Part shown: positions 4,921 to 56,916 of the stretch, one piece after another
Layout of the letters: each line of letters opens with the position of its first letter
How positions within the stretch are numbered: the first letter of the stretch is position 1
Origin: Methanobacteriota archaeon
GTDB taxonomy: Archaea > JAADCQ01 > Methanopyri > Methanopyrales > Methanopyraceae
DNA: 64,000 nucleotides
Direction of reading: 5' to 3'
NCBI GenBank assembly: GCA_027064425.1
Contig: JAMOPO010000052.1
Span: forward strand, 140,521-204,520
Notes under the pieces: model-generated
Told to the model about the DNA's origin: nothing
Seen by the model: the letters and a program-made list of their open reading frames with translations, nothing else
The model's database searches: none
Made by a program: the position numbers and the translations under genes

Positions 4921-4944
4921 GGCATCATCCCCCGGGGGTTCCGG
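4921..4944. promoter_or_regulatory. Shared palindromic Shine-Dalgarno element (rpl14e / 4945 gene)
   Basis: The whole gap between two divergent starts is 24 bp. It contains CCCCCGGGGG at 4929-4938. Read leftwards, GGGGG is 8 nt before the rpl14e GTG. Read rightwards, GGGGG is 6 nt before TTG 4945. No promoter fits in the gap, so promoters must lie inside the opposing coding regions. Confidence 0.6.
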
Positions 4945-6405
4945 TTGGCCAGGTTGTTCGGCAGGTCGGCGTGGCTTGCCCTAGCAGCCGGTTTAACAAC
5001 GTTGTTGGCCTACTTGGCGCACCTCGGGCACGAGTCCGTGACCCACGCCCCGAACCGTCACGCGGCCGAAAACGCCCCGCTCCACTACGCGATCTGCGCC
5101 ATCATCGCCGCGTGCGCGGTCCGGCTCACGCCGGGTTATTCAGCCCTGAACGTCCTCCTGAACTGCGCGCTCAGGGAGACGCCGAGACCGCTACCGACCG
5201 GGCCGTGGCTGGCGTGGCAAGGGCTCAAGGTCGGGGCCCTGATCGTCCTCCTGCACGGATTCCCCACGGTCCCCGTCGTGCACTGGATCGCCTCCGGCAA
5301 CCCGGCCCGGGTGGTCCTGGCCCTCGGGATCCTGCTCGGTCCCCCGTTCAAGGTCAGGGCCGCGATGCTCCTGCTCTCTCACCTGGCCAGCGCCGCGCTG
5401 GACGCGCAGGAGTACGCGAACGACCGCGAGCTGCTGGAGTCCGCGATGATCTCGCACGGCCTCCGCATCGCGGCCGTGGTCCTGGGGATCGCCACCGTCA
5501 CCCTCGCCACCTACCCCATTATCTCAATGTACCTCCTCCCACTGCTGGCCTTCCTGGCGGCCCTCAGCCTGCACCTGTGGTCTCAGTCCCGGCTTCCATG
5601 GCGGGAGTACCGCCAACTGAGCGGGCTGATCGACCGGATTAAGCGAGGCCTTATCCTGGCGGTGGCGCTGCTCCCCACCGTTCCGGTCCTGGACCTCCTG
5701 ACCGGCGTCCCCACGGAGCTGACGATCCACGCGTGGGCCACCATGGTCGGAGAGGCCGTCCTGCAGCCCCACTCGGTGAAGCTCGACCCCGCCTCCTACC
5801 TGACCCAAACCCCCGCCCAGCTCTCCCGAGCCTGGAGCGCGGGACGCTCCCCGGTGTGGGGCGTCACCGGAGACCGGCTGCAGGTCGTGGTCAGCGACGG
5901 GCGCGGCCACGGCTGGGTCATCGACCCCAGGTCCGGGGCGATCAGAGGTACTCTCAAGGTTCCCATCGAGGCCATTGAGCGGCAGGAGGACGCGCTCCGG
6001 CGTGCGTTCCCGTACCTCCGACCCGGGGCGCCCGTGCTGAGGGACGGTCGAGTCCGGGTGAGCGCGTGGATCGTCGCCGACGTGTGGCTGCCGTTCCTGG
6101 GGTTCACCCTGGCACTGCCCGTCTCGGGTGATCCGGCCCTCCCGAGGAACGAGTGGGGGCTCGCCTGGTACCCGGCCCGCTGGAGGGGTCGACTGGTGCC
6201 CGTGCTCATCCCGATCGAGACGCTGGCGATGCCGGTCCTTGAGGTGCCGGGCGAGGCCCTGGTCTCGATCCCCCCGCCGCGTTCCCTGAAACTGTGGCTG
6301 CACGGGCCCGGGTTCGTCCGCATCGACCGGGGGAGGGTGATCCTCCTGAGACCGGAGTATCGGTCCGACGGGACGCTGAAGCGCCTGGAAGCGATCAGGG
6401 TGTGA
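4945..6405 (+). CDS. Polytopic membrane protein of unknown function
   Basis: About 486 residues from TTG 4945, chosen because GGGGG precedes it by 6 nt; the frame stays open further upstream but only through rpl14e antisense sequence. The N-terminal half has about seven hydrophobic segments, with a HLGHE...[14 protein letters not shown] stretch. The C-terminal half (from about residue 260) is soluble, beta-rich and lacks Cys, and may be extracytoplasmic. I recognise no family. The downstream helicase gene starts 13 bp later, so the two may share a transcript. Confidence 0.65.
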
Positions 6406-6418
6406 GGGGTACGGTAGC

Positions 6419-8884
6419 GTGAAGGCGGCCGTCTTCCTCGAGCGGAAGGGGAACAAGGTGCGGATCGCGTTCACCGAGGACGATCCCAGGTCCGGGGCGG
6501 AGATAGAAAGGGAGGCTCTGCTGGAGCTGGGCCCGGACGAGCGGCCGGTGAGAGGCGTGCTGGACGGTGATCCGACCCCGCCGGACAAGATCCTCAACCG
6601 GGTCCGGGCGGCGGGCACCGTTCTGGCGCGCGGGGACCTGGCCAAGACCGCCGAGCGACTTCTCGGCGGCAAGGTCGAGCGGGCGGAGTTCTGCCGCCGT
6701 TGCCTGGCCTCGGACAAGATCACGGTCCTTGACGGCGGGTACAAGTTCGGGGACGTGCGCGTCTGCGGGGAGTGCGCCGAGGAGATCCTGGAGGAGGAGC
6801 TGAGGTTCCGCGTCCCGAACTTCTCGCAGACCCTGCTGGAGCGCCTGAAGGAGCTCTTGGACCGGTTCCGCGACGTCGACCGCGTGATCGAGATGGTGGA
6901 CCCCTCGTTCGACCCGGCCCGCGAGGACGAGAAGACGCGGTGGGACGTGGTCGAGGCGGAGGATGAGGAAGAGGAGGAGCGCCTGCCGATCTCGAAGGTG
7001 GACGCCCCGGCCCGACTCATCAGCCTCCTGCGCGAGCTCGGGTACCGCGAGCTGACCCCGGTTCAGACCAAGTGCGTACGCGCGGGCCTGCTGGAGGGCG
7101 AGAACCTGCTGGTGGTGTCTCCCACCGGGTCCGGGAAGACGCTCGTGGCCGAGCTCGCGGGCCTGACCCGGGTGCTCGAGGAAGGGAAGAAGATGGTCTA
7201 CCTGGTGCCCCTCGTGGCGCTGGCCAACCAGAAGTTCCGCGAGTTCCGGGAAAAGTACGGCGAGAGGCTCAACGTCGGCGTCCGACTCCAGGTCGGTGCG
7301 ACCAGGCTGAAGGAGTTCTCGAGACCGGAGCGGGGCCCCGACCCGGAGGAGGCGGACATCATCGTGGGGACGTACGAGGGGTTCGACCTGCTCCTCCGCA
7401 CCCGGGCGATCGACCCGGACGAGATCGGTGTGGTTGTGATCGATGAGGTGCACAGCTTGGCCGACGAGGACCGAGGTCCCCGGCTGGACGGTCTTATTTG
7501 CCGCCTTAAGACCCTGACCGACGCGCAGCTACTGGGCCTGTCGGCCACGGTGGGCAACCCGGAGGAGCTCGCGGAGTACCTCGACGCGCGCCCGGTCATC
7601 CACGAGCGGAGGCCGGTACCGTTGGAGTATCACCTCGTGATCAACCAAGACCGACGGCAGAAGTGGGACCGCATCGCCCGGCTCGTGGAGGCGGAGTGGG
7701 AGACGGAGTACTCCACCGGCTACCGGGGCCAGACGATCGTCTTCACCCACTCCCGGCAGAACACGCACCGCCTGGCCGACTTCCTCCAGGAGCGGACGGG
7801 GCTGGACGTCGCCCCCTACCACGCTGGGCTGCCCTACGACCGGCGCAAGTCGACCGAGCAGGCCTTCGAGCGGGGCGAGCTGGCGGCCGTCGTCACGACC
7901 GCGGCCCTCGGCGCGGGCGTCGATTTCCCAGCCTCTCAGGTGATCTTCGAGAGCCTGGCGATGGGTGTCGAGTGGCTGACGCCCATGGAGTTCCAGCAGA
8001 TGGCGGGGCGGGCTGGACGGCCCGGTTACCACGACCGGGGCAAGGTCGTCCTGATGGTGGAGCCGGGGCGCCGGTACCACTCCGGTCAAGAGGACACCGA
8101 GGACAAGGTCGCCTTCCGACTGCTCGAGTCGGAGCCGGAGCCGGTCGAGGTGGAGTACGACGATGAGGACGAGCGCGAGCAGGTGCTGGCGCACGTGGCC
8201 AGCGGCGCCGCCTCCTCCCCGGAGGAGCTCCGACGGGTCTGCTCCGAATCCTTCGGGTTCGCCGGCGACCCGGAGCGGAGGCTCAAGGAGCTTCGGGAGA
8301 TGGGGTTCGTGAAGGGGTTCAAGCTGACGCGCCGGGGCCGGGTGGCCGCCCGCTACTTCGCCGGACCGCGCACGGTGCACCGGCTCGTCGAGTCCGAGCG
8401 AGAGGATCCACTGCAGGCCGTGGCCGAGGTGTGCCCGTTCGAGCGGCTGCAGCTGTCCCCCTCGATCCGGCGGGCGGTCGAGCGGGTCACGAGGATGTCC
8501 GTGCCCGCCCGCTTCGAGGACGCCCTGGAGGTCATCCACTCCGAGCGCCGCGAGGTGCTTGAGCACCTACCCAAGAAGGAGCGTGACCGACTGATCAAAC
8601 TGATCCGAGCGGTGGACTGCGGGTGCGATGCGTTCCCGCACTGCGATCACGTGCCCGCCAAGGCCTCTGCGCTGCTGCTGAGGACGCGCTTAGAGGGTAA
8701 ATCAGTCTTCGCCATGCCCAGGGAGCTGGAGCGGAGGTACGGTCTAACGGCGTACCCGACCGACGTCGCGAGCTGGCTGGAGGAGGTGATCCGGCTCCTG
8801 GAGTGCGCGGCCGAAATCGCGGAGGAGCCGGGGATGAGGGCGGCGGCGGAGGCCCTCGCCGATCCCTGGTCTACCCGCCGCTGA
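6419..8884 (+). CDS. Ski2-like DExH helicase with N-terminal zinc finger
   Basis: An 821-residue superfamily 2 helicase. Walker A is SPTGSGKT (about residue 234), motif II is the DEVH box (about 341), motif III is SAT, and motif VI is QMAGRAGRPGY. Before the core is a CxxC...CxxC zinc knuckle (Cys92, 95, 116, 119) and an acidic linker. The C-terminus has a second Cys/His cluster (CGCDAFPHCDH). This architecture matches a methanogen-associated Ski2-like family rather than canonical Hel308. RNA or DNA unwinding is inferred. The start is GTG 6419; its role in the cell is unknown. Confidence 0.88.
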   Translation: MKAAVFLERKGNKVRIAFTEDDPRSGAEIEREALLELGPDERPVRGVLDGDPTPPDKILNRVRAAGTVLARGDLAKTAERLLGGKVERAEFCRRCLASDKITVLDGGYKFGDVRVCGECAEEILEEELRFRVPNFSQTLLERLKELLDRFRDVDRVIEMVDPSFDPAREDEKTRWDVVEAEDEEEEERLPISKVDAPARLISLLRELGYRELTPVQTKCVRAGLLEGENLLVVSPTGSGKTLVAELAGLTRVLEEGKKMVYLVPLVALANQKFREFREKYGERLNVGVRLQVGATRLKEFSRPERGPDPEEADIIVGTYEGFDLLLRTRAIDPDEIGVVVIDEVHSLADEDRGPRLDGLICRLKTLTDAQLLGLSATVGNPEELAEYLDARPVIHERRPVPLEYHLVINQDRRQKWDRIARLVEAEWETEYSTGYRGQTIVFTHSRQNTHRLADFLQERTGLDVAPYHAGLPYDRRKSTEQAFERGELAAVVTTAALGAGVDFPASQVIFESLAMGVEWLTPMEFQQMAGRAGRPGYHDRGKVVLMVEPGRRYHSGQEDTEDKVAFRLLESEPEPVEVEYDDEDEREQVLAHVASGAASSPEELRRVCSESFGFAGDPERRLKELREMGFVKGFKLTRRGRVAARYFAGPRTVHRLVESEREDPLQAVAEVCPFERLQLSPSIRRAVERVTRMSVPARFEDALEVIHSERREVLEHLPKKERDRLIKLIRAVDCGCDAFPHCDHVPAKASALLLRTRLEGKSVFAMPRELERRYGLTAYPTDVASWLEEVIRLLECAAEIAEEPGMRAAAEALADPWSTRR

Positions 8885-9203
8885 GCTCCTCGAGCGCCCG
8901 GCGCGCGAGCTCCGCCGCCTTCCTGCCCCGGACGGTTAACGCCCCCTCCACCTCCGTGCCGAGCACCGTGGCGCGAATGCGGGCCTCCACCTCCTCCTCT
9001 CGCACCTCACCCTCAACGTCCACGGAGTATCGATCCTTCGCGTCCTTCAGCCTCACCTGGTAGGAGTCACCCTCTAGCTCGACGTCGATCTCCGCATTCT
9101 TGACGACGTCGACGACGGCCACCACCGACTGCTCCAGCACCTGCATCGCGAGCCGCATGACGTTCTCCGGCGTCATGTACTTCTTCACCAGCTTGTCGAG
9201 CAA
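8871..9203 (-). CDS. Small conserved-looking protein, unknown function
   Basis: A 110-residue acidic protein starting LDKLVKKYMTPENV and ending in RKAAELARRALEEL. The middle is a beta-strand pattern (EIDVELEGDSYQVRLKDAKD) between helices. I recognise no family. The start is placed at TTG 9203, because GGGGG (9211-9215) is exactly 7 nt upstream. An ATG at 9230 would instead overlap the divergent ATG and has no ribosome-binding site. The 3-prime end overlaps the helicase stop by 14 bp. Confidence 0.55.
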   Translation of the reverse strand: MLDKLVKKYMTPENVMRLAMQVLEQSVVAVVDVVKNAEIDVELEGDSYQVRLKDAKDRYSVDVEGEVREEEVEARIRATVLGTEVEGALTVRGRKAAELARRALEELSGG

Positions 9204-9228
9204 GGCGGTGCCCCCGGTGGTGGTACCC

Positions 9229-10101
9229 ATGTCCGGCGAGCGCCGGGAGTACCGGCTGATCCCGGTGAGGGATAAGTACTGGCGGGTAGGCTCCGGGGCG
9301 TTGAAAAACGCGTTGACGGCGCTCGAGGGGGTTGAGCTGCGGGACGGGGACGTGCTGCTGGTCTCCGAGAAGGCGGTGGCCGTGGCCGAGGGAGAGCTCA
9401 TCGACGAGCGCGAGTACGAGCCCGGTCCCCTGGCCAAGCTGCTGGTGACCCTGTGGATGAGGATCGTCTGGGGGCGGATACTGGGGCCGCTGCTGGGACC
9501 GCTGATGGATCCGCCGCTGCGCGAGGAGACCATCCGGAACTTTCGACGCTATCCGAAGCGGGAGGGAGCGATGCACAAGCAGATGATCCTTGAGGAGTTC
9601 GGCCTGCTTCACGCGCTGGAGCCGGTATCGGAGGCCGGCTGCGACGTGGGGAACGTCCCGGGGTACTTCGCCGCGCCCGTCCCGGCCTCGGCCGACCGGT
9701 TCGCGCGACGCTTGAGGGAGCGGCTGCGCGAGGACCGCGGGGTGGACGTGTCCGTCGTCGTGGGAGACACCGACAAGACGTACGAGCTCTTCGGTGTACT
9801 CTTCACGACGATCGCTCGGGCGCACCCGGAGATAATCTCCGGGACGGGCGTCCTAGGGTTCCTAATCGGCCGACTCCTGGCGCGAACCCTGGGCCCGACG
9901 CCCGTCGCCATCGCGGGCGACGTGGAGGTCCGGGAGGCGATTCGGCTCCTGAAAGAGGCCGAGCGGGTCCGGACGAAGGGGGCGGGGCGCACGGTCTACG
10001 ACGCGCTGGACGAGGTGGGCGACCCGGGGCGCCTCGACGAGGACTTCCTGAACAGGTTCGAGCACGTGCCGATCGTGGTGGCTCGCCCCGTCAGCCGGTG
10101 A
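9229..10101 (+). CDS. CofE-like (F420-0 gamma-glutamyl ligase family) protein
   Basis: A 290-residue protein. It starts YRLIPVRDKYWRVGSG and contains LRDGDVLLVSEKAVAVAEGELID, CDVGNVPGYFAAPVP and VVVGDTDKTYELFG, matching the order of motifs in CofE (glutamate addition to F420-0). It carries a long hydrophobic insert (MRIVWGRILGPLLGPLM) not usual in CofE, so it may be a paralog with another substrate rather than the F420 enzyme. The ATG at 9229 has GGTGG 8 nt upstream. The 3-prime end overlaps TBP by 11 bp, convergently. Confidence 0.7.
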   Translation: MSGERREYRLIPVRDKYWRVGSGALKNALTALEGVELRDGDVLLVSEKAVAVAEGELIDEREYEPGPLAKLLVTLWMRIVWGRILGPLLGPLMDPPLREETIRNFRRYPKREGAMHKQMILEEFGLLHALEPVSEAGCDVGNVPGYFAAPVPASADRFARRLRERLREDRGVDVSVVVGDTDKTYELFGVLFTTIARAHPEIISGTGVLGFLIGRLLARTLGPTPVAIAGDVEVREAIRLLKEAERVRTKGAGRTVYDALDEVGDPGRLDEDFLNRFEHVPIVVARPVSR

Positions 10102-10681
10102 GCTTCAGCCCGTACTTCTCGATCTTCTCCGCGACCTTCCGTGCCGCCTTCTCCGGCTCGTCCTCGGTCTTCGCGCCCGTGCACACGGCCTTACCCGAGT
10201 AGAACAGGAGCATCGCCACGTCGGGCTCCTTGAGCCGCAGCACCAGGCCGGGGAACTGCTCGGGCTCGTACTCGATGCCCTCCACGTCCTCGTCCTCCGT
10301 GAGCACCTCCGCGATCATGTCCAGGTCCAGCGAGACGTTGAAGTCAATCGAGGCCACGATGTTCTGGATCTCGATCTCGGGCTCGCCCTCGAACTCGACC
10401 CCGCACTTCTTCTCCAGGTCCTCCCGCACCCGCTCCACGCTCTCGTAGATCTGCTCCCTGGTCTTGGCCCCGGTGCAGACCATCTTTCCGGACCGGAAGA
10501 TCAGCACCACGGTGCCGATGTCCTCCAACCGGTAAACGAGGCCCGGGAACTGCTCAGGCTCGTACTCACCCTGCAGGATCACGGAGCACTCGTCCAGGTT
10601 AACTTCACCCTTCAGATCCACCGAGGCCACGATGTTCTGGATGTCTACCTCGGGCTCGATTTCCTTCGATTCTTCCGCCAT
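10091..10681 (-). CDS. tbp: TATA-binding protein
   Basis: The archaeal general transcription factor that binds TATA boxes with TFB and recruits RNA polymerase. The 196 residues hold the two direct repeats of the saddle, each with EYEPEQFPGLVYRL-type and SGKMVCTGAKT-type motifs. The N-terminus has a short acidic leader (MAEESKEIEPEVDIQN). The ATG at 10681 lies 77 bp inside the end of the upstream kinase gene, so the two are probably cotranscribed. The repeats match the family at full length. Confidence 0.97.
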   Translation of the reverse strand: MAEESKEIEPEVDIQNIVASVDLKGEVNLDECSVILQGEYEPEQFPGLVYRLEDIGTVVLIFRSGKMVCTGAKTREQIYESVERVREDLEKKCGVEFEGEPEIEIQNIVASIDFNVSLDLDMIAEVLTEDEDVEGIEYEPEQFPGLVLRLKEPDVAMLLFYSGKAVCTGAKTEDEPEKAARKVAEKIEKYGLKLTG

Positions 10682-11636
10682 TGGGAGGGGACCCCCCATC
10701 GCATGGTAGTGCCGGGACCGGCTCGCCCTCCAAATACCTCAGCCCCAGCAGGCACAGCCCTCGCGCCTCGAGGTCCTCACCCGCGAAGACGGCCACCTCG
10801 CCACCCCACAGCTCCGACACCCTCCGTTTTAAAAGTTCGTTTTTAACACCACCGCCCGAGAGCACCAGCAGGTCCGCGTCGAACCGGGACGCGTTCCTCA
10901 CGATCGTCTCCGCCACCAGCTCGGTCACCGTCCGCAGCGCGTCCTCCGGCTCCCCCTCGAACTCGGAGAGCACGGGCTTCAGCAGCCGCTCCTGCTCCGG
11001 CGGAACGACGCCTAGACTGCCCTTGACCGGGCCGAACACCGGCTGACCGTCCGCCTCCAACCCCTCCAGCCTCCGCCTCAGCCCTCCGTCCACCTCGCCC
11101 CGGGCCGCGGCCCGCCCGCCCTCGTCGTACTCCTCCCCCAGCAGCTCCCGGGCCGCCAGATCGATGGGAAAGGTGCCGGGGCACACGACCGCCTTCCCGA
11201 AGTCCGGGTCGCCGCCCTCGATCGGCGTCACGACCGCCATCGCGCCCACGTCCACGTGCACGCAGTCCGGGTACTCCTCCGCCACGCAGTACGGCGCGCC
11301 CACGGCGTCACCGTCCGGGGCTCCCCACGGGTCCCCGTACACCGCCAGCGTGGGCACGCCCGTCCGCTCGTGGATCATCGGTCCCAGGATCAGACCCAGC
11401 TCGTCCACGATCGTGCCCACGACGACCAGGTCCGGATCCACCTCCCGGACCCGGCGGACGACCCGGGGGGCGATCTCGCGGCGCAGCGCGCGCCGGCTCT
11501 CCTCGAGCGGGAACACGCACGAGATCTTGCCGAAGACCCCCTCCTCCCGGGCCACGATCTCCCACTCGCCCCGCTCGTTCATCAAGCAGTAGTCCGTGCC
11601 CGTGTTCCCCAGCTGAACCCCCAGCACCCGGACCAA
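10605..11636 (-). CDS. AnmK-family (anhydro-N-acetylmuramate kinase-like) ASKHA kinase
   Basis: About 343 residues with the ASKHA fold. It begins VRVLGVQLGNTGTDY (phosphate loop), has HVDVGAMAVVTPIEGG, and then the AnmK-like DEGGRAAARGEVDGGL, EDALRTVTELVAETIV and LLVLSGGGVKNELL motifs. The bacterial enzyme recycles anhydro-MurNAc. Archaea lack muramic acid, so the substrate here is unknown; a pseudomurein sugar is conceivable. The start is TTG 11636, with GGGGG 9 nt upstream. The last 30 residues are low-complexity and read into the tbp gene. It shares a bidirectional promoter region with rpl22. Confidence 0.75.
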   Translation of the reverse strand: MVRVLGVQLGNTGTDYCLMNERGEWEIVAREEGVFGKISCVFPLEESRRALRREIAPRVVRRVREVDPDLVVVGTIVDELGLILGPMIHERTGVPTLAVYGDPWGAPDGDAVGAPYCVAEEYPDCVHVDVGAMAVVTPIEGGDPDFGKAVVCPGTFPIDLAARELLGEEYDEGGRAAARGEVDGGLRRRLEGLEADGQPVFGPVKGSLGVVPPEQERLLKPVLSEFEGEPEDALRTVTELVAETIVRNASRFDADLLVLSGGGVKNELLKRRVSELWGGEVAVFAGEDLEARGLCLLGLRYLEGEPVPALPCDGGSPPNGGRIEGNRARGRHPEHRGLGGSEG

Positions 11637-11660
11637 GCGCGCCGGCCCCCTTCCCGATGA

Positions 11661-11670
11661 CGATTTAAGA
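11661..11670. promoter_or_regulatory. Bidirectional TATA-like element (rpl22 / AnmK-like gene)
   Basis: The only AT-rich patch in the 77-bp divergent gap: GATTTAAGAG on the plus strand and CTCTTAAATC on the minus strand. It lies about 45 bp from the rpl22 TTG and about 28 bp from the kinase TTG. A single near-symmetrical TATA box could serve both. Confidence 0.45.
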
Positions 11671-11713
11671 GCAGTGAAACCCCGGCCGGGGTCCGGAAAC
11701 GGGGGCGGATCGC

Positions 11714-12193
11714 TTGACGAGGACGAAGAAGTGGCATTACTCGATTCCACCCGAGGAGCTGGACGAGGACCGCACCGCCAAGGCCTTCATCCGCGAGCTG
11801 AGGATCTCGCCCAAGCACGCCCGCGAGATCTGCCGGGCCATCCGCGGCAAGCCGCTCGACGAGGCCAAGGAGTTCCTGAAGCGCGTGATCCGGAAGGAGG
11901 AGGCGGTGCCCTTCAGGAAGCACAAAAAGAAGGTTCCGCACCGCCGGCAGATCCGGCCGGGATGGGACGCCGGTAGGTTCCCGCAGAAGGCCGCGCGCGA
12001 GATCCTACGGGTCCTGGAGCACGCGGAGGCCAACGCCGAGCAGAAGGGCCTGGACACGGACCGCCTCTACATAAAGCACATAGCGGCGCACAAGGGCCGC
12101 GTGATCCGCGGCTGGATCCCGCGAGCCTTCGGGCGAGCGACCCCGTTCAACACGCCCACCACGCACATCGAGGTGATCCTGGAGGAGCGCTAG
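11714..12193 (+). CDS. rpl22: Ribosomal protein L22
   Basis: A large-subunit protein that lines the peptide exit tunnel. The 159 residues show the archaeal form: [16 protein letters not shown] near the N-terminus, the extended basic hairpin ([22 protein letters not shown]), and the C-terminal [17 protein letters not shown]. The start is TTG at 11714. It opens a ribosomal operon fragment L22-S3-L29-SUI1. S19, which normally precedes it, is absent here. Confidence 0.97.
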
Positions 12194-12207
12194 GGGGAGC
12201 CCCCGCC

Positions 12208-12924: not shown

Positions 12925-12927
12925 CCC

Positions 12928-13161: not shown

Positions 13162-13179
13162 GGGGAAGGCCCCGGAAAG

Positions 13180-15635: not shown

Positions 15636-15692
15636 GGCCCGGACCCCGCTACCTCTATTTCCACTACGAGCGTGAACCGAGTGGGGAGCACC

Positions 15693-18658: not shown

Positions 18659-18670
18659 CTCGCCTCCCCC

Positions 18671-19285: not shown

Positions 19286-19287
19286 GC

Positions 19288-24140: not shown

Positions 24141-24665
24141 TTATCCTTTACGCGTGAACCTCCGGCTAACGCGCTCCTGACGCGACCGCTTGTTGGCACA
24201 CTCAGAGCACACGTCGACTTTCTTGTTGCTCTTAAACCTCTTACCACACAGTTTGCACCTGCACTCGTAGAGGCGCGCCCGCTTCCCCTCCCGCCTCGCC
24301 ATCCGCTTGATCCGGCTCGTCCGCTCCACCTCCCGGGTCAGGTAGAACCAGGTATCACCGAACACGTCTCGGCCCCGCATGACCACCTTCCTCGCCACCT
24401 CCAGCCCGGACGGGTCCCCCCTCATGGCCCGGACCATCGCGCTTAAGAACTGCCTCTCCCGGTACCGGTAGATGTCGATGGCGTCGTTCGGGCAGACGCG
24501 GACGCACTCGTCGCACGCGTCGCAGGCCTCCAGGTTTACGATCACGACCTCGTCGCCCTTCACATCCAGCACGCCGCGGTCGCACACCTCCACGCAGAGC
24601 GCGCAGGAGGGACCCTCGCAGCGCTCCCGATCGATCTCGATCCTTCGGACCGCCAACTCCTCCAC
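24141..24665 (-). CDS. 2x[4Fe-4S] ferredoxin fused to a C-terminal zinc ribbon
   Basis: 174 residues. The N-terminal ferredoxin has two clusters of cysteines (Cys16, 21, 24, 28 and Cys48, 51, 54, 58; CDECVRVCP). A 70-residue basic linker follows. The C-terminus has CRCKLCGKRFKSNKKVDVCSEC, a zinc-ribbon or Fpg-like finger, and an Arg/Lys-rich tail. The combination suggests a redox-active nucleic-acid- or ribosome-binding protein. The start is GTG 24665, or TTG 24656, which fits the G-run spacing better. No characterised homolog is known to me. Confidence 0.75.
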   Translation of the reverse strand: MEELAVRRIEIDRERCEGPSCALCVEVCDRGVLDVKGDEVVIVNLEACDACDECVRVCPNDAIDIYRYRERQFLSAMVRAMRGDPSGLEVARKVVMRGRDVFGDTWFYLTREVERTSRIKRMARREGKRARLYECRCKLCGKRFKSNKKVDVCSECANKRSRQERVSRRFTRKG

Positions 24666-24673
24666 CCCAGGGG

Positions 24674-25078
24674 ATGAAACGCTTGAACGTGCATGTTAGG
24701 GAGCGGGAAGGAGACGTCGTGCTGGAGTTCTGCGGGGAGGACGGGTGCATCCAGGTGTCGGCCCGGGCCTTCTACACCGCGGTGATAATGAGCGGCGAGG
24801 ACACCGTGGAGAAGACCAAGGAGCTCCTCACCAAGCCCTTCGAGCTGCTCGGGGAGGATCCCCCCGAGGTGCGCGTCCGCAGGTCGGAGGATCCGGAGGG
24901 TACCCTGCTGAACCCTTGGGTGACCTCGTCGCACGAGGAGGTCGAGTTCTTTACGTTCGAGCTGGAACGGGGAGGCGAGACTTTAAAACTCTCCTTGGCA
25001 GTCCCGCGCGGCTCTCGGGGCGGCACCTCAAAAATCAAGGAGGTCATTAACCTATTGAAGTCTCGACTCCCGTGGTGA
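24674..25078 (+). CDS. Hypothetical protein
   Basis: 134 residues, mixed alpha/beta. The N-terminus is strand-rich (LNVHVREREGDVVLEFCGEDGCIQV). The centre reads GEDTVEKTKELLTKPFELLGEDPPEVRVR, and the end reads SKIKEVINLLKSRLPW. I recognise no motif. ATG 24674 directly follows GGGG, so TTG 24683 (spacing 9) may be the true start. It precedes the PhoU-like regulator by 18 bp and is probably cotranscribed with it. Confidence 0.55.
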   Translation: MKRLNVHVREREGDVVLEFCGEDGCIQVSARAFYTAVIMSGEDTVEKTKELLTKPFELLGEDPPEVRVRRSEDPEGTLLNPWVTSSHEEVEFFTFELERGGETLKLSLAVPRGSRGGTSKIKEVINLLKSRLPW

Positions 25079-29731: not shown

Positions 29732-29760
29732 GGCGAGATCCCCGACGGGGGTGTGAAAGG
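29732..29760. promoter_or_regulatory. Shared palindromic Shine-Dalgarno element (29731 / 29761 genes)
   Basis: CCCCGACGGGGG at 29740-29751. The left arm read on the minus strand is GGGG, 8 nt before GTG 29731. The right arm GGGGG is 9 nt before TTG 29761. The gap is only 29 bp. Confidence 0.5.
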
Positions 29761-32813: not shown

Positions 32814-33978
32814 GCCCACTCCCCCGCAACAGCTCGGTCAGGAACCCCGGATTAACGGAAAGGTAGCCCAGGACCGCGCCGAGCGCCGCCGGCACGGCGC
32901 AGTCGATCCCGAAGAGCTCCATCACCAGCACCGCGGCCGAGACCGGGGCGTCGAAGGCCACCGCCAGGAACGCGGACATGGAGGCTGCGACCGCCGCCGG
33001 TGCGGGCAGCCCCACCGCCTCGCGGACGGCGGACCCGAAGAAGGCCGACGCGCACACGACTGGCGAGACGAAGCCCGCCGGCACGCCGCTCCCCAGGGTG
33101 AGCGACGTGGCCGCGACCTTGCCCAGGAACGCCAGCAGCGACTCGGCCGGCCCCATCCGCCCCATCGCCGCCGAGGACGCCCAGTCCAGTCCTAACCCCG
33201 TGGCCTGCGGGACCACCAACCCCAGCGCCGCCACCGACAGTCCGGCGAGCAGTGATCGGGCCTCCGACCTGGGGATCCTGTGCAGCCATCGGTAAACGAC
33301 CTGGACCGCGAGCACCAGCCCCCGTGCGGCCGCGGCCGAGACCAGCCCCACGACTGTCAATTTAGGCAGGTCCACCCAGGAGTAAGCGTACGGGGCGTGG
33401 GCCGTCAGCAGGTAGCGCTTCCCCAGGATCAGGCAGTAGACCGTGTACCCGGTGACGCTGGCGACGACGGCGGGCGGCAGGCACGCGTACCTCAGCCTCC
33501 CCGTGAGCGCCTCCAGCGCGAACAGGGCGGCGGCGACCGGGGCGCAGAGGACGCCGGCCACGCCGCCGGACGCGGCCGCGGCCACCAGCCACTCCCGCCG
33601 CAGCCCGGTCAGGCCCCACCGATCCGCGCACCACCGACCCAGGGACACGCAGGATTGCACGCAGGGGCCCACCTGGCCCCCGCTACCGCCCGCCCCGATC
33701 ACGACCCCGGCCAGCAGGAGCTTGAGCGCGCCGGCCACCGGGTTCCTGGCCTCTCCGCGCCGAGCGACGTCCAGGCCCGTGCCTGGGAGCTCCGGATGCA
33801 GCGAGCTCAGGGCTCCGGCAAGCGCCATTACCACCGGCGTCAGCCACCCTGATCCGCCCGACAGCCGGCTCACGACCGCGATGGTCCAGGTGATGGCGGA
33901 GGCGCACAGTCCGCCGGCAGCCCCCAGGGCCAGGGTCGCCGCCGTCCACCGCACCGCTAACGTTAGATCGGTCCGCAG
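32734..33978 (-). CDS. CLC-family chloride channel
   Basis: 414 residues, about 11 membrane helices. The selectivity-filter motifs are recognisable: LPGTGLD (for GSGIP), GSGGQVGPCVQSC (for GREGPxVQ) and SGVPAGFVSP (for GxFxP). The gating glutamate position reads Val, which suggests a channel rather than a proton exchanger. No CBS domains are attached. No good ATG, GTG or TTG lies near the N-terminus; CTG 33978 has GGAGG 8 nt upstream, whereas GTG 33954 has no ribosome-binding site. The last 27 residues overlap the CYTH gene. Confidence 0.82.
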   Translation of the reverse strand: MRTDLTLAVRWTAATLALGAAGGLCASAITWTIAVVSRLSGGSGWLTPVVMALAGALSSLHPELPGTGLDVARRGEARNPVAGALKLLLAGVVIGAGGSGGQVGPCVQSCVSLGRWCADRWGLTGLRREWLVAAAASGGVAGVLCAPVAAALFALEALTGRLRYACLPPAVVASVTGYTVYCLILGKRYLLTAHAPYAYSWVDLPKLTVVGLVSAAAARGLVLAVQVVYRWLHRIPRSEARSLLAGLSVAALGLVVPQATGLGLDWASSAAMGRMGPAESLLAFLGKVAATSLTLGSGVPAGFVSPVVCASAFFGSAVREAVGLPAPAAVAASMSAFLAVAFDAPVSAAVLVMELFGIDCAVPAALGAVLGYLSVNPGFLTELLRGSGRVRGGGEDSGREPGGGQGEAPGDGRA

Positions 33979-34003
33979 GGCCGACCCCTCCCGGGGCCGG
34001 GTG
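33979..34003. promoter_or_regulatory. Shared palindromic Shine-Dalgarno element (CLC / cupin)
   Basis: CCCCTCCCGGGG at 33985-33996. On the minus strand GGAGG is 8 nt before the proposed CLC CTG. On the plus strand GGGG is 7 nt before the cupin ATG 34004. The gap is 25 bp. Confidence 0.5.
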
Positions 34004-42620: not shown

Positions 42621-42625
42621 GGACG

Positions 42626-43536: not shown

Positions 43537-43538
43537 CG

Positions 43539-44932: not shown

Positions 44933-44934
44933 GG

Positions 44935-45705: not shown

Positions 45706-45711
45706 CTCGGC

Positions 45712-47783: not shown

Positions 47784-47811
47784 CGCACCCCGTCGGGGAG
47801 TGTCGTCGGAG

Positions 47812-48357: not shown

Positions 48358-48360
48358 ACC

Positions 48361-51037: not shown

Positions 51038-51049
51038 GGGGGAACCCCC
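51038..51049. promoter_or_regulatory. Shared palindromic Shine-Dalgarno element (GlmM-like / tRNA methylase)
   Basis: The entire gap between two divergent start codons is GGGGGAACCCCC. On the plus strand GGGGG is 7 nt before TTG 51050. On the minus strand GGGGG is 7 nt before GTG 51037. The spacings are identical, and no other intergenic base remains. Confidence 0.7.
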
Positions 51050-51856
51050 TTGCACGCGTTCCTTCTCGCCGGCGATAACGTCGAGCTGGCGCTGATGGAA
51101 TTAAAGGGCGCGCTCCGGGCGGAGGTGGGCGAGAGGGAGGTCGAGGTCCACGACCGGGTCGCGGTGGTCGAGGGACTCACCGACGATGAGGCGGAGCGGG
51201 TCGTTCGGCGGCTCGCCCGGACGCACGCGGTTTACCGGCTCGGTGAAGGGAACGCCAGGCTCGAGATCGGGGGCGAGCGCAGGCGGGCCCGACTCCTCGC
51301 GGAGCGCGAGAAGCTGTCCGACCGTAAGCCGCACAAGCGCCCCGAGTTCATGCCCGACTCCACGGAGCCCTTCCTGGCCCGAGCCCTGGTCAACCTGGCC
51401 GAGGCACGGCGCGGGGAGCGCCTGCTGGACCCGATGTGCAACGTGGGTGGGATCCTCATCGAGGCGGGGCTGATCGGGTGCGTACCCGTCGGAGTCGAGG
51501 TCCGGGAGGAGCTCGTGGAGCGGGCGGAGCGTAACCTGCGGCACTACGGGATCAAGGAGTACGAGCTGCACGCGGGCCGGGCGGAGGAAGTGGACGAGAT
51601 TCTGGATGAACCTGTGCAGGCGGCCGCCGTGGACCCACCGTACGGTAGGTCCTCCTACATTGAGGGGGGCCCGGTCGAGCGGCTGCTGCTGAACACCCTG
51701 GACGCGCTGTCCGAGGTCGTCGAGGGTAAGGTCTCGCTGACCGCGCCCGTGGACGCCTGGGAAGAAGTTAAAGGGAGCGTGAGAAGGGTGGAGGGCGAGA
51801 CCCGGGACCGCGTTCACCGCAGTCTCACCCGAGTCATCGCCGTTGTCGTGCCCTAG
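51050..51856 (+). CDS. tRNA (guanine-10-N2) methyltransferase (Trm11 family)
   Basis: 268 residues. A reduced N-terminal THUMP-like region (residues 1-75) precedes the methyltransferase core: RPEFMPDSTEPFLARALVNLAEARRGERLLDPMCNVGGILIEAGLIG (SAM loop) and AAVDPPYGRSSYIEGG, with the DPPYG catalytic motif of N2-guanine methylases. It forms m2G or m2,2G at tRNA position 10. TTG 51050 is fixed by the GGGGG 7 nt upstream. Confidence 0.9.
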   Translation: MHAFLLAGDNVELALMELKGALRAEVGEREVEVHDRVAVVEGLTDDEAERVVRRLARTHAVYRLGEGNARLEIGGERRRARLLAEREKLSDRKPHKRPEFMPDSTEPFLARALVNLAEARRGERLLDPMCNVGGILIEAGLIGCVPVGVEVREELVERAERNLRHYGIKEYELHAGRAEEVDEILDEPVQAAAVDPPYGRSSYIEGGPVERLLLNTLDALSEVVEGKVSLTAPVDAWEEVKGSVRRVEGETRDRVHRSLTRVIAVVVP

Positions 51857-51858
51857 CG

Positions 51859-51908
51859 GTGATGACCGCGGACCGCTCCTGACCTGTGATGAGTTTTCGG
51901 GGAGCTGA
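51859..51908 (+). ncRNA. C/D-box guide sRNA
   Basis: A consensus archaeal C/D sRNA in the 60-bp gap between two convergent genes. Box C is GTGATGA (51859-51865), followed by a 13-nt guide. Box D-prime is CTGA (51879-51882), then a 3-nt spacer. C-prime is GTGATGA (51886-51892), followed by a 12-nt guide. Box D is CTGA (51905-51908). By the N+5 rule the D guide would direct methylation of a C within CTCCCCGAAAAC, and the D-prime guide a G within GAGCGGTCCGCGG. All four boxes are perfect and evenly spaced. Confidence 0.8.
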
Positions 51909-51916
51909 CCCCCGCC

Positions 51917-53293
51917 TCACAGGCGCTGCCGCAGGTACGCTATCACCGCCCGGGCCCCGGACGCGATTATCCTTTTGAACAGGAACAGGTTGCCCTCGCG
52001 CAGGGCGCTCAGCAAGTACCTAGGGTTAAGGTAGTACGAGATGTACGCCCACTGCAGCAGCCGGCTCAGCTCCTTCCGACTCAAATGTTCGGTCCTCATC
52101 ACCGGATCCAGCGTTGTGTACCTCGACCAGTCGCGCACCTCAATTAGCCCCTTCTCCTCGGCCATGTCGTACAGAGGCGTGCCCGGATATGGGGTGCACA
52201 CTGTGAACTGCACGTAATCTGGTCTGATCCGGCGGGCGAACTTGATCGTCCTCAAGACGTCCTCCCGATCCTCCCATGGAAACCCCAATATGAACGACAG
52301 CAGTATCCTTAAGCCGTGCCGTTTTGCCACCTTCCGGCACCCAATAATGTCTCGTACCGTAATCCCCTTGTTGATCCTTTTCAGCGTCTCATTACTAGCC
52401 GACTCGGCCCCCACGTAAACCGTGGTGCACCCATGGTCACGCAGAATTTTGGCGACCTCGGGCGTGAGTAAATCCGCCCTCGCTCCGCAATCCCACGGGA
52501 CGTCGATTCCCTCCTCCCGCATCTTTTCACAGATCTCTCTCAACCGGCGCTTGTGCACGGTGAACACGTCGTCCACGAACTCGATTCGATCCACTTTGAG
52601 CTCCTCCACCAGGTACCGCAGCTCCTCCACCACGAGCTCCGGGCTCTTCCCCCTCCATCTAGGGAACAGTCGAGAGGAGGCGCAGAAGATGCATCGGAAC
52701 GGGCATCCGCGGCTCGTGATCACCGGGGCGAACCTGACCCCGTCCGCCGCGTAGTTGTCCAGGTCGACCTTGTCGTACGCCGGGATCGGCAGCCGATCCA
52801 GGTCCTCCGGCTCCTTCCGGTCCGGGTTTCGCACGATCCGGGAGCCGTCCCGGTACGTGATTCCATCGATATCTGAGAAGTCGGGCTCATCCCACCCGTC
52901 CACCTCTTCCAGTACCCGGGTAGTCGGCGTCTCCCCCTCACCGCGGATGATCACGTCGGCCCGGCCCTCTCTCAGGGCTTCTCGGTCCATGAAGGTGGGG
53001 TGCGGGCCCCCCAGGAACACGAACTTGCCCAGCTCCTTCGCCATCCTGGCGACCCGGTAGGCCGACGGGGCCACCGGGGTGGTGGCCGTGACGCCGATCG
53101 CGTCGTACTTCTTCAGCACTCCGGGTAAGTCCTCCATGCCGACGCCCTCGGCGGGGCAGTCCAGGATGTCCACGTGGAACCCTTCCTCCTCGAGCTTGGC
53201 GGCCAGGTGCACCAGCCCGAGCGGGAACGAGGAGACCCCGAGCACCCGGGCGATGTTGTCCTCAAACGGCGGCTGGACCAGCAGCACTTTCAC
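51917..53293 (-). CDS. B12-binding radical SAM protein
   Basis: 458 residues. The N-terminus is a cobalamin-binding-like Rossmann domain (VLLVQPPFEDNIARVLGVSSFPLGLVHLAAKLEEEGF), without an obvious DxHxxG. The radical SAM cluster is Cys197-xxx-Cys201-xx-Cys204 in SRGCPFRCIFCASS. A VEELKVDRIEFVDDVFTV segment follows, and the C-terminus is helical (YISYYLNPRYLL). It resembles BchE/hopanoid-type methylases and cyclases. The substrate is unknown. The GTGA overlap with the SPASM gene upstream suggests a joint pathway. Confidence 0.88.
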   Translation of the reverse strand: MKVLLVQPPFEDNIARVLGVSSFPLGLVHLAAKLEEEGFHVDILDCPAEGVGMEDLPGVLKKYDAIGVTATTPVAPSAYRVARMAKELGKFVFLGGPHPTFMDREALREGRADVIIRGEGETPTTRVLEEVDGWDEPDFSDIDGITYRDGSRIVRNPDRKEPEDLDRLPIPAYDKVDLDNYAADGVRFAPVITSRGCPFRCIFCASSRLFPRWRGKSPELVVEELRYLVEELKVDRIEFVDDVFTVHKRRLREICEKMREEGIDVPWDCGARADLLTPEVAKILRDHGCTTVYVGAESASNETLKRINKGITVRDIIGCRKVAKRHGLRILLSFILGFPWEDREDVLRTIKFARRIRPDYVQFTVCTPYPGTPLYDMAEEKGLIEVRDWSRYTTLDPVMRTEHLSRKELSRLLQWAYISYYLNPRYLLSALREGNLFLFKRIIASGARAVIAYLRQRL

Positions 53294-54699
53294 TCGCCGG
53301 TGCCCCCAGCGGCCATGACGCACCCGGGGTCCGGGCCGCGCACACCGCCCTCGATCGCGTAGGCGCGCGCTCTGCACCCGCCGCACACGTACCGGAACTC
53401 GCACTCGCCGCACGGACCTTCCAACTCGTCGCGGTCCCGACACGCCCAAAGCACCTCGTGGTCCCAGAGCTCCTCCGGGTCGTCCTCCAGGATGTTCCCG
53501 ATTTTAATCGGAAGGAACACGCACGGCTGGACGTCGCCGTTCGGTCGGATAGCCAGCAGGAATCGGCCGGCGCCGCACCCACCCAGGAACTCCACCAGGG
53601 GCTCGACCCACCGACCCTCCCCGGAGTACGCGAAGTGGGTGCCGTAAAGCACGCCCCCCTCCCCGGACTCGGACATTTGGAGGCTCACTCGGGCCATCTG
53701 TGGTGCGGTGGAGTAGACCATCAAGTCCCGGTCCAAAGCCTCTCGAACGAGCGTCTTGAGCACCTCCTCGCGGACCTCCGGCGGCAGGTCCAGCTCCGGA
53801 CGGAACCGGCCCTGCCCCGTGGGTATGAAGTTGAACACGGCGACCCCGTCGGCCCCGAGCTCCTCGGCGAGGTCCAGCATCTGCGGGAGCTCGTCCACGT
53901 TGTTCCGGTGCACGGTGAACGCGATCACCGTCATCATGTCCGTCTCGGCGCAGTGGCGGACGCCCTCCACCGCCCGCTCCCAGGCGCCCTTGACCCCGCG
54001 GAACTTGTCGTGCGTCTCGGGGCGTGCCCCGTCCAAGCTGATCTCAACGTACTCCACGCCGGCGGCCTCCAGCCGCTCCGCCGTGTCCCGATCGATCAGG
54101 GTGCCGTTCGTGGCGAGCGCCGTGAACATTCCCTCGCTCGCGGAGGCCTCGGCCAGCTCGAAGAAGTCGTCCCGCATCAGGGGCTCACCGCCGGAGAACG
54201 CCAGCCCGGGGACGTTCCACTCCGAGAGCCGCTCGATGACCTCCAGCGCCCGCTCGGTGTCCAGCTCGCCCGGCGCGGGCTTGCCCGCCTCCGAGTAGCA
54301 GTGCTCGCACCGCAGGTTGCACAGCCCCGTCACGTCCCACACCACGAGGTACGGGGCGGCCGGGACGAAGGGCTTCCGAACCCCGTATCGGTAGATTCCG
54401 AGTAAGGTGACCGCGACGCCCCTCCGGTAGGCGTCCATCGACATTATCTCTCGGAGGGTCTCCTCCTCCACCCCGACCGCTCCCGCCGCCTTCTCCACGA
54501 ACTTCCTCACGGTCTTGGCCGCAACCTTGCACTTCCAGCACGCATCCTCACGTCCTCCGTAGGCCACGTCTAACGCGACTTTCACCCTTACATCTCCACA
54601 CGATTCACACTCCTTGGTGGCCACTTTCATCAGTTTCTTACCCACTCTCGAATCCAGAATACGGTTCAGCACGCGTATGAACTCAGCAACCCTAGCCAT
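53290..54699 (-). CDS. Radical SAM/SPASM protein with N-terminal Cys motif
   Basis: 469 residues. The radical SAM motif is Cys127, 131 and 134 in GLCNLRCEHCYSEAG, followed by AFSGGEPLMRDD. The C-terminal SPASM-like cluster includes CGECEFRYVCGGCRARAYA. An extra N-terminal domain holds CESC (31-34) and CWKC (54-57). SPASM enzymes mature peptides or tetrapyrroles (AhbC/AhbD); the added Cys pairs could bind zinc or another cluster. It lies between the B12 radical SAM gene and cofH on one strand. Confidence 0.88.
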   Translation of the reverse strand: MARVAEFIRVLNRILDSRVGKKLMKVATKECESCGDVRVKVALDVAYGGREDACWKCKVAAKTVRKFVEKAAGAVGVEEETLREIMSMDAYRRGVAVTLLGIYRYGVRKPFVPAAPYLVVWDVTGLCNLRCEHCYSEAGKPAPGELDTERALEVIERLSEWNVPGLAFSGGEPLMRDDFFELAEASASEGMFTALATNGTLIDRDTAERLEAAGVEYVEISLDGARPETHDKFRGVKGAWERAVEGVRHCAETDMMTVIAFTVHRNNVDELPQMLDLAEELGADGVAVFNFIPTGQGRFRPELDLPPEVREEVLKTLVREALDRDLMVYSTAPQMARVSLQMSESGEGGVLYGTHFAYSGEGRWVEPLVEFLGGCGAGRFLLAIRPNGDVQPCVFLPIKIGNILEDDPEELWDHEVLWACRDRDELEGPCGECEFRYVCGGCRARAYAIEGGVRGPDPGCVMAAGGTGE

Positions 54700-54714
54700 A
54701 TCGTGCAGTCCCTC

Positions 54715-55803
54715 CTAATACATCTTCACCGGCTCGTAGAGGGTCGTGCGCTGCACCGGGGTGAAGCCGGCCTCCCGGATTATTTCTACCATTTCTTCGG
54801 GTTCCAACCGTTCCCCCTCGGTTGCTCCAGCCTCTCTGGATATATTCTCTTCCATTAACGTCCCGCCCAGGTCGTTGGCGCCCGCGTGCAGGGCGGCCTG
54901 AGCGAGCTTAACCCCGAGCTTGACCCACGAGGCCTGTATGTTCGGAATGACGGGTCCGAAGTACAGGCGGGCAACGGCGTGAACCAGCAGGTCCGTCATC
55001 CCGGAAACGCCCGGTCGAACGTCACCCTCCTTGTACAGCGGCGAGTTCGCGTGGACGAATGATAACGGTACGAACTCCGTGAAACCACCCGTGTCCTCCT
55101 GAATCCGCCGAAGACGCTTCATATGGTCGATCCAGTCGTGGGGTGAGTCCACGTGACCGTACATCATCGTGCACGTGGTCGGGATGCCCATCTCGTGGGC
55201 CGTCCGGATGATCCGCTCCCACTCGTCCGCGTCGATCTTGTCCGGGCAGATCCGCTTGCGGACCCGGGGCGAGAAGATCTCGGCCGCCGTCCCCGGCATT
55301 GAGTCCAGCCCGGCCTGCTTCAGCTCCCGCAGCACCTCCTCGAGCTCCTCACCCGCCAGCTCGCAGCAGTACTTGACCTCCATGGGAGAGTAACCGTGGA
55401 TGTGGATGTCCGGAGCCTGCGACTTGATCTCCTCCAGGATCTCCAGGTAGTACTCGAACGTGGCGTCCGGGTGCAGCGCGCCCTGCACGCAGACCTCCGT
55501 CGCCCCCTTGTCCCGGGCCTCGGCCGCCTTCTCGCCGACCTCCTCGGGCGACATCATGTAGGCGTCCGGGTCGTCCGGGTCCCGGCGGAAGGCGCAGAAC
55601 TTGCACCGGTTGATGCACACGTTGGTGAAGTTGATGTTCCGGTTGACGACGAACGTGACCTGCTCGCCGACCAGCTTCAGCCGGGCCTCGTGCGCCGCCT
55701 CCAGCACCTTGTACGGGTTGATCTTACCCTCCAGCGCCTTCAGCGCGGTCCCCTCGTCGATCCCACCGGAAACGGCCATGTTGACCAGCTCGTCCACGCT
55801 CAC
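54715..55803 (-). CDS. cofH: FO synthase subunit 2
   Basis: Joins tyrosine to 5-amino-6-ribitylaminouracil in F420 synthesis. The 362 residues have the cluster motif Cys63-INR-Cys67-KF-Cys70, with CVQGALHPD, GTAAEIFSPRVRKRICPDK and TTCTMMYGHVD typical of CofH. The start is GTG 55803, just after the cofG stop; an upstream extension would overlap cofG. FO is the chromophore precursor of the hydride carrier F420. Confidence 0.95.
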   Translation of the reverse strand: MSVDELVNMAVSGGIDEGTALKALEGKINPYKVLEAAHEARLKLVGEQVTFVVNRNINFTNVCINRCKFCAFRRDPDDPDAYMMSPEEVGEKAAEARDKGATEVCVQGALHPDATFEYYLEILEEIKSQAPDIHIHGYSPMEVKYCCELAGEELEEVLRELKQAGLDSMPGTAAEIFSPRVRKRICPDKIDADEWERIIRTAHEMGIPTTCTMMYGHVDSPHDWIDHMKRLRRIQEDTGGFTEFVPLSFVHANSPLYKEGDVRPGVSGMTDLLVHAVARLYFGPVIPNIQASWVKLGVKLAQAALHAGANDLGGTLMEENISREAGATEGERLEPEEMVEIIREAGFTPVQRTTLYEPVKMY

Positions 55804-55810
55804 GTCGTCG

Positions 55811-56890
55811 TCATCCCGCCGCGAATCCCTCCTCGTCCGCGAGCTCTTCGATGACGTCGGCGAGGTTCGCATGGTACCAGCCCCGGCGGACGTACTCCGG
55901 GTATATGGGCAGCCGCTCCCGGAGCCGTAGTCCCACCTCTTCGGTGAGTCTTTTCAGCTCTTCAATCTCCGGCCACGGCGCCTCCGGGTTCACGTAGTCC
56001 TTCGTGACCGGGGAGACGCCGCCCCAGTCGTTGGCACCCGCCAGCAGCGCCAGCTGCCCGGTCTCCCGGTTCAGGTTAGGCGGGACCTGAATCGGCACGT
56101 CCGGGAGCATGAGCCGGGCCTTCGCCACCGTCCTGAGCAGGTCCGCCGGCGTCGGCTCCGGGTGGTCCTCCATCGGAATCCCCGGCTTGGCCCGGAAGTT
56201 CTGGACGATCACCTCCTGCACGTGACCGTACCGCTCGTGCAGCTCCCGGATCTTCTCCAGCGTCTCCACGCGCTCCCTCCACGTCTCCCCGATCCCGATC
56301 AGGATGCCCGTCGTGAAGGGGACCTTCAGCTGCCCCGCGTACTTGAGCACCTTCAGCCGCTCCTCCGGCCGCTTGCCCGGTGAGTGCTCGTGCGGCCCAC
56401 CCTCCTCGCACAGCCGGTCCGAGAGGATCTCCATCATCAGACCCAAGCTCGCGTTCCACCGGCGCAGCTTCCGCATCTCCGACTTGGTGACCACCCCGGG
56501 GTTGCTGTGCGGGAGCATCCCGTACTCCTCCACGCACCGCCGACACAGGTCGACCAGGTACTCGATCGTGCTCGAGTACCCGTGCTCCTCCAGCCACTCC
56601 AGCGCCTCGTCGTACCGCTCCTCGGGCCGCTCCCCGAACGTGAACAGCACCTCCTTGCAGCCGGCGCGCCGGCCCGCCTCCACTATCTTGAAAACCTCCT
56701 CCGGAGGGAGGTAGGGGGAGTCCACCTCGTCCGGCTCCCGGCGGAACGTGCAGTACCGGCACCGGTTCCTGCAGAGCCTCGTCAGCGGCACGAATACGTT
56801 CTTCGAGTAGGAGACCACGCTACCGAACCTTTTTCGAGCCACCTCGTTGGCGCGCCGCATGAGGTCCAACAGCTCGCCTCCGAGGTTCAA
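55811..56890 (-). CDS. cofG: FO synthase subunit 1
   Basis: Radical SAM partner of CofH that closes the deazaflavin ring. The 359 residues contain LCRNRCRYCTFRREP (Cys40, 44 and 47), LFTFGERPEERYDEALEWLEEHGY, LPHSNPGVV and NDWGGVSPVTKDYVNPEAPWP. TTG 56890 has GGGGG exactly 7 nt upstream. It heads the minus-strand run cofG-cofH-SPASM-B12 radical SAM and diverges from ileS. Confidence 0.96.
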   Translation of the reverse strand: MNLGGELLDLMRRANEVARKRFGSVVSYSKNVFVPLTRLCRNRCRYCTFRREPDEVDSPYLPPEEVFKIVEAGRRAGCKEVLFTFGERPEERYDEALEWLEEHGYSSTIEYLVDLCRRCVEEYGMLPHSNPGVVTKSEMRKLRRWNASLGLMMEILSDRLCEEGGPHEHSPGKRPEERLKVLKYAGQLKVPFTTGILIGIGETWRERVETLEKIRELHERYGHVQEVIVQNFRAKPGIPMEDHPEPTPADLLRTVAKARLMLPDVPIQVPPNLNRETGQLALLAGANDWGGVSPVTKDYVNPEAPWPEIEELKRLTEEVGLRLRERLPIYPEYVRRGWYHANLADVIEELADEEGFAAG

Positions 56891-56916
56891 GGATCCGCCC
56901 CCTCGGGGGTCCCAGG
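56891..56916. promoter_or_regulatory. Shared palindromic Shine-Dalgarno element (cofG / ileS)
   Basis: The 26-bp gap contains CCCCCTCGGGGG at 56898-56909. Each arm provides GGGGG exactly 7 nt before a TTG start (56890 minus, 56917 plus). No TATA-like sequence fits between the genes. Confidence 0.7.

What the first reader, a model, noticed from the sequence alone, without database searches (positions are those of the whole stretch)
4921..56916. Recurrent bidirectional Shine-Dalgarno palindromes between divergent genes
At several divergent pairs the intergenic gap is only 12-29 bp and consists mainly of a C-run/G-run palindrome whose two arms are the ribosome-binding sites of both genes: 4929-4938 (CCCCCGGGGG), 29740-29751, 33985-33996, 51038-51049 and 56898-56909. 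Weaker cases are 9211-9220, 24665-24673 and 47788-47798. Spacing to the start codon is 6-9 nt on each side. No promoter can fit, so each promoter must lie in the neighbour's coding region and the two mRNAs would have complementary 5-prime ends covering both ribosome-binding sites. That could allow mutual antisense control or concerted translation. I know no description of this arrangement as a class.
Basis: partly seen in the sequence, partly recalled or inferred. Interest (0 to 1): 0.75.

Follow-up and report, generated by a model that had tools for sequence, protein, structure and literature searches.

The report
Back-to-back ribosome sites pack divergent genes
In the heat-loving archaeon Methanopyrus about a quarter of head-to-head gene pairs are squeezed so tightly that little more than the two genes' ribosome-binding sites fits between them, which makes a CCCCC/GGGGG palindrome and leaves open where these genes' promoters are.

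Summary
The window is a Methanopyrus genome. Seven of the eight listed sites are ribosome-binding sites of divergent gene pairs; 47788 is doubtful. Without using ribosome sites to choose starts, 34 of 61 C4+N0-4G4+ palindromes in divergent regions have in-frame start codons 5-10 nt away on both sides, against 0.1 for shifted controls (M. kandleri: 21 of 33, against 0.2).

Divergent gaps come in two narrow classes. At 24-29 bp the Shine-Dalgarno (SD) runs lie back to back, CCCCC.GGGGG. At 12-15 bp they are crossed, GGGGG.CCCCC. Gaps between these are rare, because a G-run and a C-run cannot share bases. One SD module measures 12.9 nt, so two predict 25.7±2.5; observed 26.7±2.0. Arm lengths do not covary. 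Co-directional genes pile up at 12-15 bp, one module. The palindrome is best read as a by-product of compaction down to two ordinary G-run SDs.

No promoter fits: TATA boxes sit near -39 at roomier pairs but are not clearly detectable here. Antisense control or coupling is untested; mRNA overlap is forced only in the crossed class. What stands out is a divergent spacing peak near 26 bp, against a published mode of 135 bp over 530 genomes.

The parts
4921..4944 (.). 24-bp gap, back-to-back SDs CCCCC|GGGGG (4929-4938); left GTG 4920, right TTG 4945
   Evidence: CCCCGGGG at the same place in M. kandleri and G001, CCCCCGGGGG in G003
9204..9228 (.). 25-bp gap; left SD GGGGG good, right SD weak (GGTGGTGG); left TTG 9203, right ATG 9229 (conserved with M. 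kandleri) rather than GTG 9217
24657..24682 (.). 26-bp gap, CCCCAGGGG; left TTG 24656, right TTG 24683
   Evidence: orthologous M. kandleri gap 26 bp with CCCCCGGGG
29732..29760 (.). 29-bp gap, CCCCGACGGGGG; left GTG 29731 (95-aa gene), right TTG 29761
33979..34003 (.). 25-bp gap, CCCCTCCCGGGG; left start probably CTG 33978, right ATG 34004 (or GTG 34001)
   Evidence: left start inferred from frame and orthologue
47788..47798 (.). CCCCGTCGGGG; spacings 4 (left TTG 47783) and 13 (right ATG 47812), doubtful member
51038..51049 (.). 12-bp gap, crossed SDs GGGGGAACCCCC; left GTG 51037 (phosphomannomutase family), right TTG 51050 (methyltransferase family)
   Evidence: conserved with gap 12-13 in five of five Methanopyrus genomes
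56891..56916 (.). 26-bp gap, CCCCCTCGGGGG; left TTG 56890 (radical SAM), right TTG 56917 (class I tRNA synthetase, Ile/Val/Leu type)
   Evidence: 29 bp in G003, about 112-118 bp in M. kandleri and G001

Best explanation
Methanopyrus uses a G-run (GGGG, GGGGG, GGGGTGA) as its SD, with its 5' edge about 13 nt before the start codon. Deletion and selection for compactness have shrunk the gaps between genes until they hit these SD modules: none at convergent pairs (gap about 0), one at co-directional pairs (12-15 bp), and at divergent pairs either two end to end (24-29 bp) or two crossed over the same 12-15 bp. Because the two SDs of a divergent pair are on opposite strands, G-run against C-run, packing them automatically makes a palindrome and makes gaps of about 17-23 bp hard to occupy. 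Shown: the two gap classes, the module size, the lack of arm covariation, conservation across species. Inferred: compaction as the cause; transcription starting at or just before the G-run (from TATA near -39 at roomier genes); promoters, where they exist, lying in the neighbour's coding sequence and so competing for RNA polymerase.
For: Start-agnostic test: 34 of 61 (own) and 21 of 33 (M. kandleri) back-to-back palindromes have in-frame starts on both sides against 0.1 and 0.2 in shifted controls; crossed type 10 and 8 against 0.1 and 0. Module 12.9 nt, two modules 25.7 +/- 2.5, observed 26.7 +/- 2.0; arms abut with 0 nt in 26 of 48; arm lengths uncorrelated; both SDs present in 45 of 60 pairs at 24-31 bp and 14 of 18 at 12-15 bp but 5 of 22 at 16-23 bp. 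Co-directional peak at 12-15 bp, convergent near 0. A C4 run directly before the SD is seen in 43 of 56 and 37 of 49 genes of the 23-32 bp class but 1-9% of other classes. Arms kept while flanks diverge between species.
Against: The sharp gap peak appears only when starts are chosen with SD information. Some palindromes sit before one gene only, with no partner gene. Compaction does not explain how these genes are transcribed. That the cause is deletion or selection for compactness is not tested.
Confidence: 0.8

Rival explanations
1. Mutual antisense or coupled control: both mRNAs start inside the neighbour gene, overlap at their 5' ends and cover each other's ribosome sites, so each can block or tune the other.
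For: No promoter room in the gap; no TATA at -39 that would set a short leader. In the crossed class, mRNAs that carry their own SD must be complementary over the gap. Crossed site 51038 is conserved in five genomes.
Against: No arm covariation; same packing at co-directional genes; the 56898 pair is 26-29 bp in two genomes and about 112-118 bp in two others, so close spacing is not needed for its function; a duplex of about 12 bp should be weak near 98 C (inference).
Confidence: 0.12
2. The palindrome is the operator of a DNA-binding protein that controls both genes.
For: Palindromes are concentrated between divergent genes; some lie before only one gene.
Against: Both arm orders occur (CCCC..GGGG and GGGG..CCCC), the inter-arm spacer varies from 0 to 9, arm lengths are uncorrelated, and every feature follows distance to the start codons.
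Confidence: 0.04
3. A leader hairpin or RNA thermometer: the C-run folds onto the SD and hides it at lower temperature.
For: If the mRNA starts upstream of the C-run, predicted SD opening at 37-80 C is lower than at other genes.
Against: At 98 C the predicted difference is small (0.53 against 0.58 with a 30-nt leader, 0.44 against 0.55 with 50 nt), and a start at the G-run removes the hairpin. Energies are extrapolated far from the measured range.
Confidence: 0.04

Closest known systems
Adaptation of short co-directional spacers to the Shine-Dalgarno motif (Palleja et al. 2009, PMC2784483)
   Same: Intergenic length is shaped by the room an SD needs, with preferred lengths (9-15 bp) and avoided ones (5-8 bp).
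   Different: Described for co-directional pairs. There divergent spacers rise gradually to about 100 bp, mode 135 bp, attributed to upstream regulatory signals; here divergent gaps peak at 24-29 and 12-15 bp.
Prokaryotic bidirectional promoters (E. coli, PMC12825309)
   Same: Two genes transcribed outward from nearly one spot; opposing polymerases would exclude each other.
   Different: There the symmetry is in promoter elements. Here the symmetry is in ribosome-binding sites, and no promoter element is seen in the gap.
Short-leader archaeal promoters (Thermococcus kodakarensis primary transcriptome, PMC4247193)
   Same: Median leader 16 nt with TATA 23 bp upstream predicts TATA near -39, as found at roomier Methanopyrus genes.
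   Different: Close divergent Methanopyrus pairs show little or no TATA there.

Membership tests
SD-constrained intergenic spacers | SD at a fixed short distance before the start codon, at both genes | tested here: met
   spacing mostly 6-10 nt in every class; both-sided in-frame starts 34 of 61 against 0.1
SD-constrained intergenic spacers | preferred and avoided gap lengths predicted by SD size | tested here: met
   two modules predict 25.7, observed 26.7; both SDs in only 5 of 22 pairs at 16-23 bp
SD-constrained intergenic spacers | co-directional orientation, as described in the literature | tested here: not met
   these pairs are divergent; the co-directional form is also present in the same genome. 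Hence filed as a variant, not a member.
bidirectional promoter | shared or symmetric promoter elements between the two genes | tested here: not met
   gap holds little more than the SDs; no TATA in it
bidirectional promoter | divergent transcription start sites close together | not testable with these tools
   no transcript data
operator palindrome of a regulator | fixed half-sites, spacing and order, with covarying arms | tested here: not met
   both arm orders occur, spacer mostly 0-4, arm lengths uncorrelated
RNA thermometer or SD-sequestering leader | SD paired at low and open at growth temperature, in a leader that holds both arms | tested here: inconclusive
   small predicted effect at 98 C; leader length unknown

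The most novel reading that the evidence does not exclude
In Methanopyrus about a quarter of divergent gene pairs, including essential genes, are expressed without a recognisable promoter between them. Transcription starts back to back so that the two genes exclude each other at initiation, or, in the crossed 12-15 bp pairs, the mRNAs carry complementary ribosome sites and interact.
Probability: 0.2. Interest if true: 0.75.

Novelty: new variant of a known kind. Interest (0 to 1): 0.5.

Why it matters
It conflicts with the general reading that upstream signals keep divergent genes about 100 bp or more apart. It also makes a question testable: where archaeal promoters sit when almost no intergenic DNA is left, and whether two back-to-back initiation complexes exclude each other.

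Tried and rejected
Changed anti-SD as the reason for G-runs: rejected, the 16S gene ends GGATCACCTCC in own and M. kandleri. Genome-wide count of C5..G5 palindromes as proof: rejected, total counts are at or below Markov expectation (own) or similar to it (M. kandleri); only placement is unusual. Gap peak as a gene-caller artefact: SD-free calls blur the peak, so a test using only stop-defined frames, start codons and shifted controls was run and is the main evidence. TATA in the neighbour's coding sequence: no clear signal. Hairpin or thermometer: weak at growth temperature. Central shared TATA at gaps of 74-80 bp: only in some pairs. Papers: nothing found on SD palindromes between divergent genes in the open-access library; most subscription journals are not covered.

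Full report
WHAT THE WINDOW IS. The window is C52:140521-204520 of a 1.54-Mb archaeal assembly. Its proteasome ATPase matches records titled Euryarchaeota archaeon (93%) and Methanopyri archaeon (81%), and a same-genus genome of 1,694,969 bp has, from my own knowledge, the size of M. kandleri AV19. I worked with 1.236 Mb of the window's genome and 1.44 Mb of M. kandleri.

CHECKING THE OBSERVATION. All eight sequences are at the stated coordinates. With gene frames, orthologues and family hits, seven of the eight make sense as SD pairs of divergent genes with gaps of 12-29 bp. Site 33985 needs a CTG start, 9211 has one weak arm, and 47788 does not fit. Site 51038 differs from the others: its arms are reversed (GGGGGAACCCCC), so each SD lies right beside the other gene's start codon.

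IS IT MORE THAN CHANCE? The total number of C5N0-4G5 palindromes is not raised (31 against 36-60 in Markov simulations), but 20 of the 31 lie in divergent gaps, where 0.5 are expected by area. A test that takes only frames from the gene stops and start codons from the sequence, with shifted palindromes as control, finds in-frame starts 5-10 nt away on both sides for 34 of 61 palindromes against 0.1 (own) and 21 of 33 against 0.2 (M. kandleri). The crossed type gives 10 and 8 against 0.1 and 0. Across the genus, site 51038 is kept in five of five genomes with gap 12-13, while its proteins are 60-93% identical in the relatives; 4929 and 29740 are largely kept.

WHAT IT IS. Methanopyrus starts carry a G-run SD genus-wide: GGGG before 39-77% of starts in the larger gene classes, 7% at random in-gene sites, with an ordinary anti-SD. 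The module from start codon to SD 5' edge is 12.9 +/- 1.7 nt at co-directional genes. Two modules predict 25.7 +/- 2.5; the back-to-back class has 26.7 +/- 2.0, and in 26 of 48 pairs the arms abut with no base between. Arm lengths are uncorrelated (rho -0.13, p 0.39), and the bases after the G-run are like those of other genes. Gaps of 16-23 bp, where a G-run and a C-run would have to share bases, carry both SDs in only 5 of 22 pairs. The same logic holds for co-directional pairs (peak at 12-15 bp, one module) and convergent pairs (peak near 0, none). The simplest account is compaction down to the ribosome-binding sites, with the palindrome as by-product. That compaction is the cause is inference.

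WHERE ARE THE PROMOTERS? At divergent gaps of 56 bp and more, a BRE/TATA motif lies near -39, which fits a leader of roughly 12-16 nt by analogy with T. kodakarensis (PMC4247193). M. kandleri CRISPR promoters have TTTAAA and start with G (PMC3695527). In the close classes the signal is missing: over the -54..-30 window TATA scores of the 23-32 bp class do not exceed the antisense-CDS control (p 0.41 own, 0.56 M. kandleri). One of the nine scanned windows has a small excess, uncorrected for the number of windows: 8% against 2% and 14% against 5%. The matrix finds only about a third of promoters even at roomy gaps, so weak promoters in the neighbour are not excluded. Gaps of 33-55 bp also lack TATA at -39. 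The tRNA-synthetase/radical SAM pair is a natural experiment: 26-29 bp in own and G003, about 112-118 bp with a GTTTAATCC box in M. kandleri and G001.

Complementary mRNA 5' ends are forced only in the crossed class. In the back-to-back class, mRNAs that begin at their G-run would abut. A leader reaching past the C-run would form a hairpin, which matters at 37-80 C but little at 98 C in the extrapolated model. Antisense control or coupling is thus possible but unsupported.

KNOWN AND NEW. SD-shaped spacers are known for co-directional genes; the same paper reports divergent spacers with mode 135 bp over 530 genomes (PMC2784483). Small samples of other archaea here have 3 of 86 divergent gaps in 11-32 bp (several are orthologous, so not independent), against 52 of 207 and 49 of 233 in Methanopyrus. 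I found no description of the divergent form in the papers searched; the library holds open-licence papers only.

LIMITS. Starts are predicted, not measured. The gap histogram peak depends on SD-aware start choice, although the palindrome test does not. About 0.3 Mb of own and 0.25 Mb of M. kandleri were not read. One-sided palindromes are not explained.

Noticed in passing
genome-wide, own and M. kandleri: The SD is a G-run (GGGG/GGGGG), although the 16S gene ends with the ordinary CACCTCC, so the pairing would include a G-U wobble; GGAG/GAGG is much less enriched over random in-gene sites.
   Followed up: partly
own C52:13788, 56882, 82364, 131736; C15:124561; C57:88190; C3:79244: One-sided palindromes: a C5 run directly before the SD of one gene with no partner gene using the other arm. 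About 10 in own; few at SDs in M. kandleri. Former pairs, wrong starts or something else.
   Followed up: partly
divergent gaps of 33-55 bp: These pairs also lack TATA at -39, although gaps of 56-80 bp have it clearly. Their promoters are not located.
   Followed up: no
divergent gaps of 76-79 bp in the window's genome: A small excess (13 pairs) at about twice the TATA distance; some, not all, have an A/T-rich centre that could be a shared TATA box. Not repeated in M. kandleri.
   Followed up: partly
own C57:193198 and 193241; M. kandleri 516836 and 516879: Two C5/G5 palindromes at corresponding places beside the 16S rRNA gene end in both genomes; possibly rRNA processing stems.
   Followed up: no
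33976-33978 (-): Possible CTG start codon of a CLC-type channel gene, with SD GGGG six nt before it; the M. kandleri orthologue appears to start with TTG near the same place.
   Followed up: partly
56891-56916 and orthologous gaps: The tRNA-synthetase/radical SAM gap is 26-29 bp in two Methanopyrus genomes and about 112-118 bp with a TTTAAT box in two others; the direction of change is unknown.
   Followed up: partly
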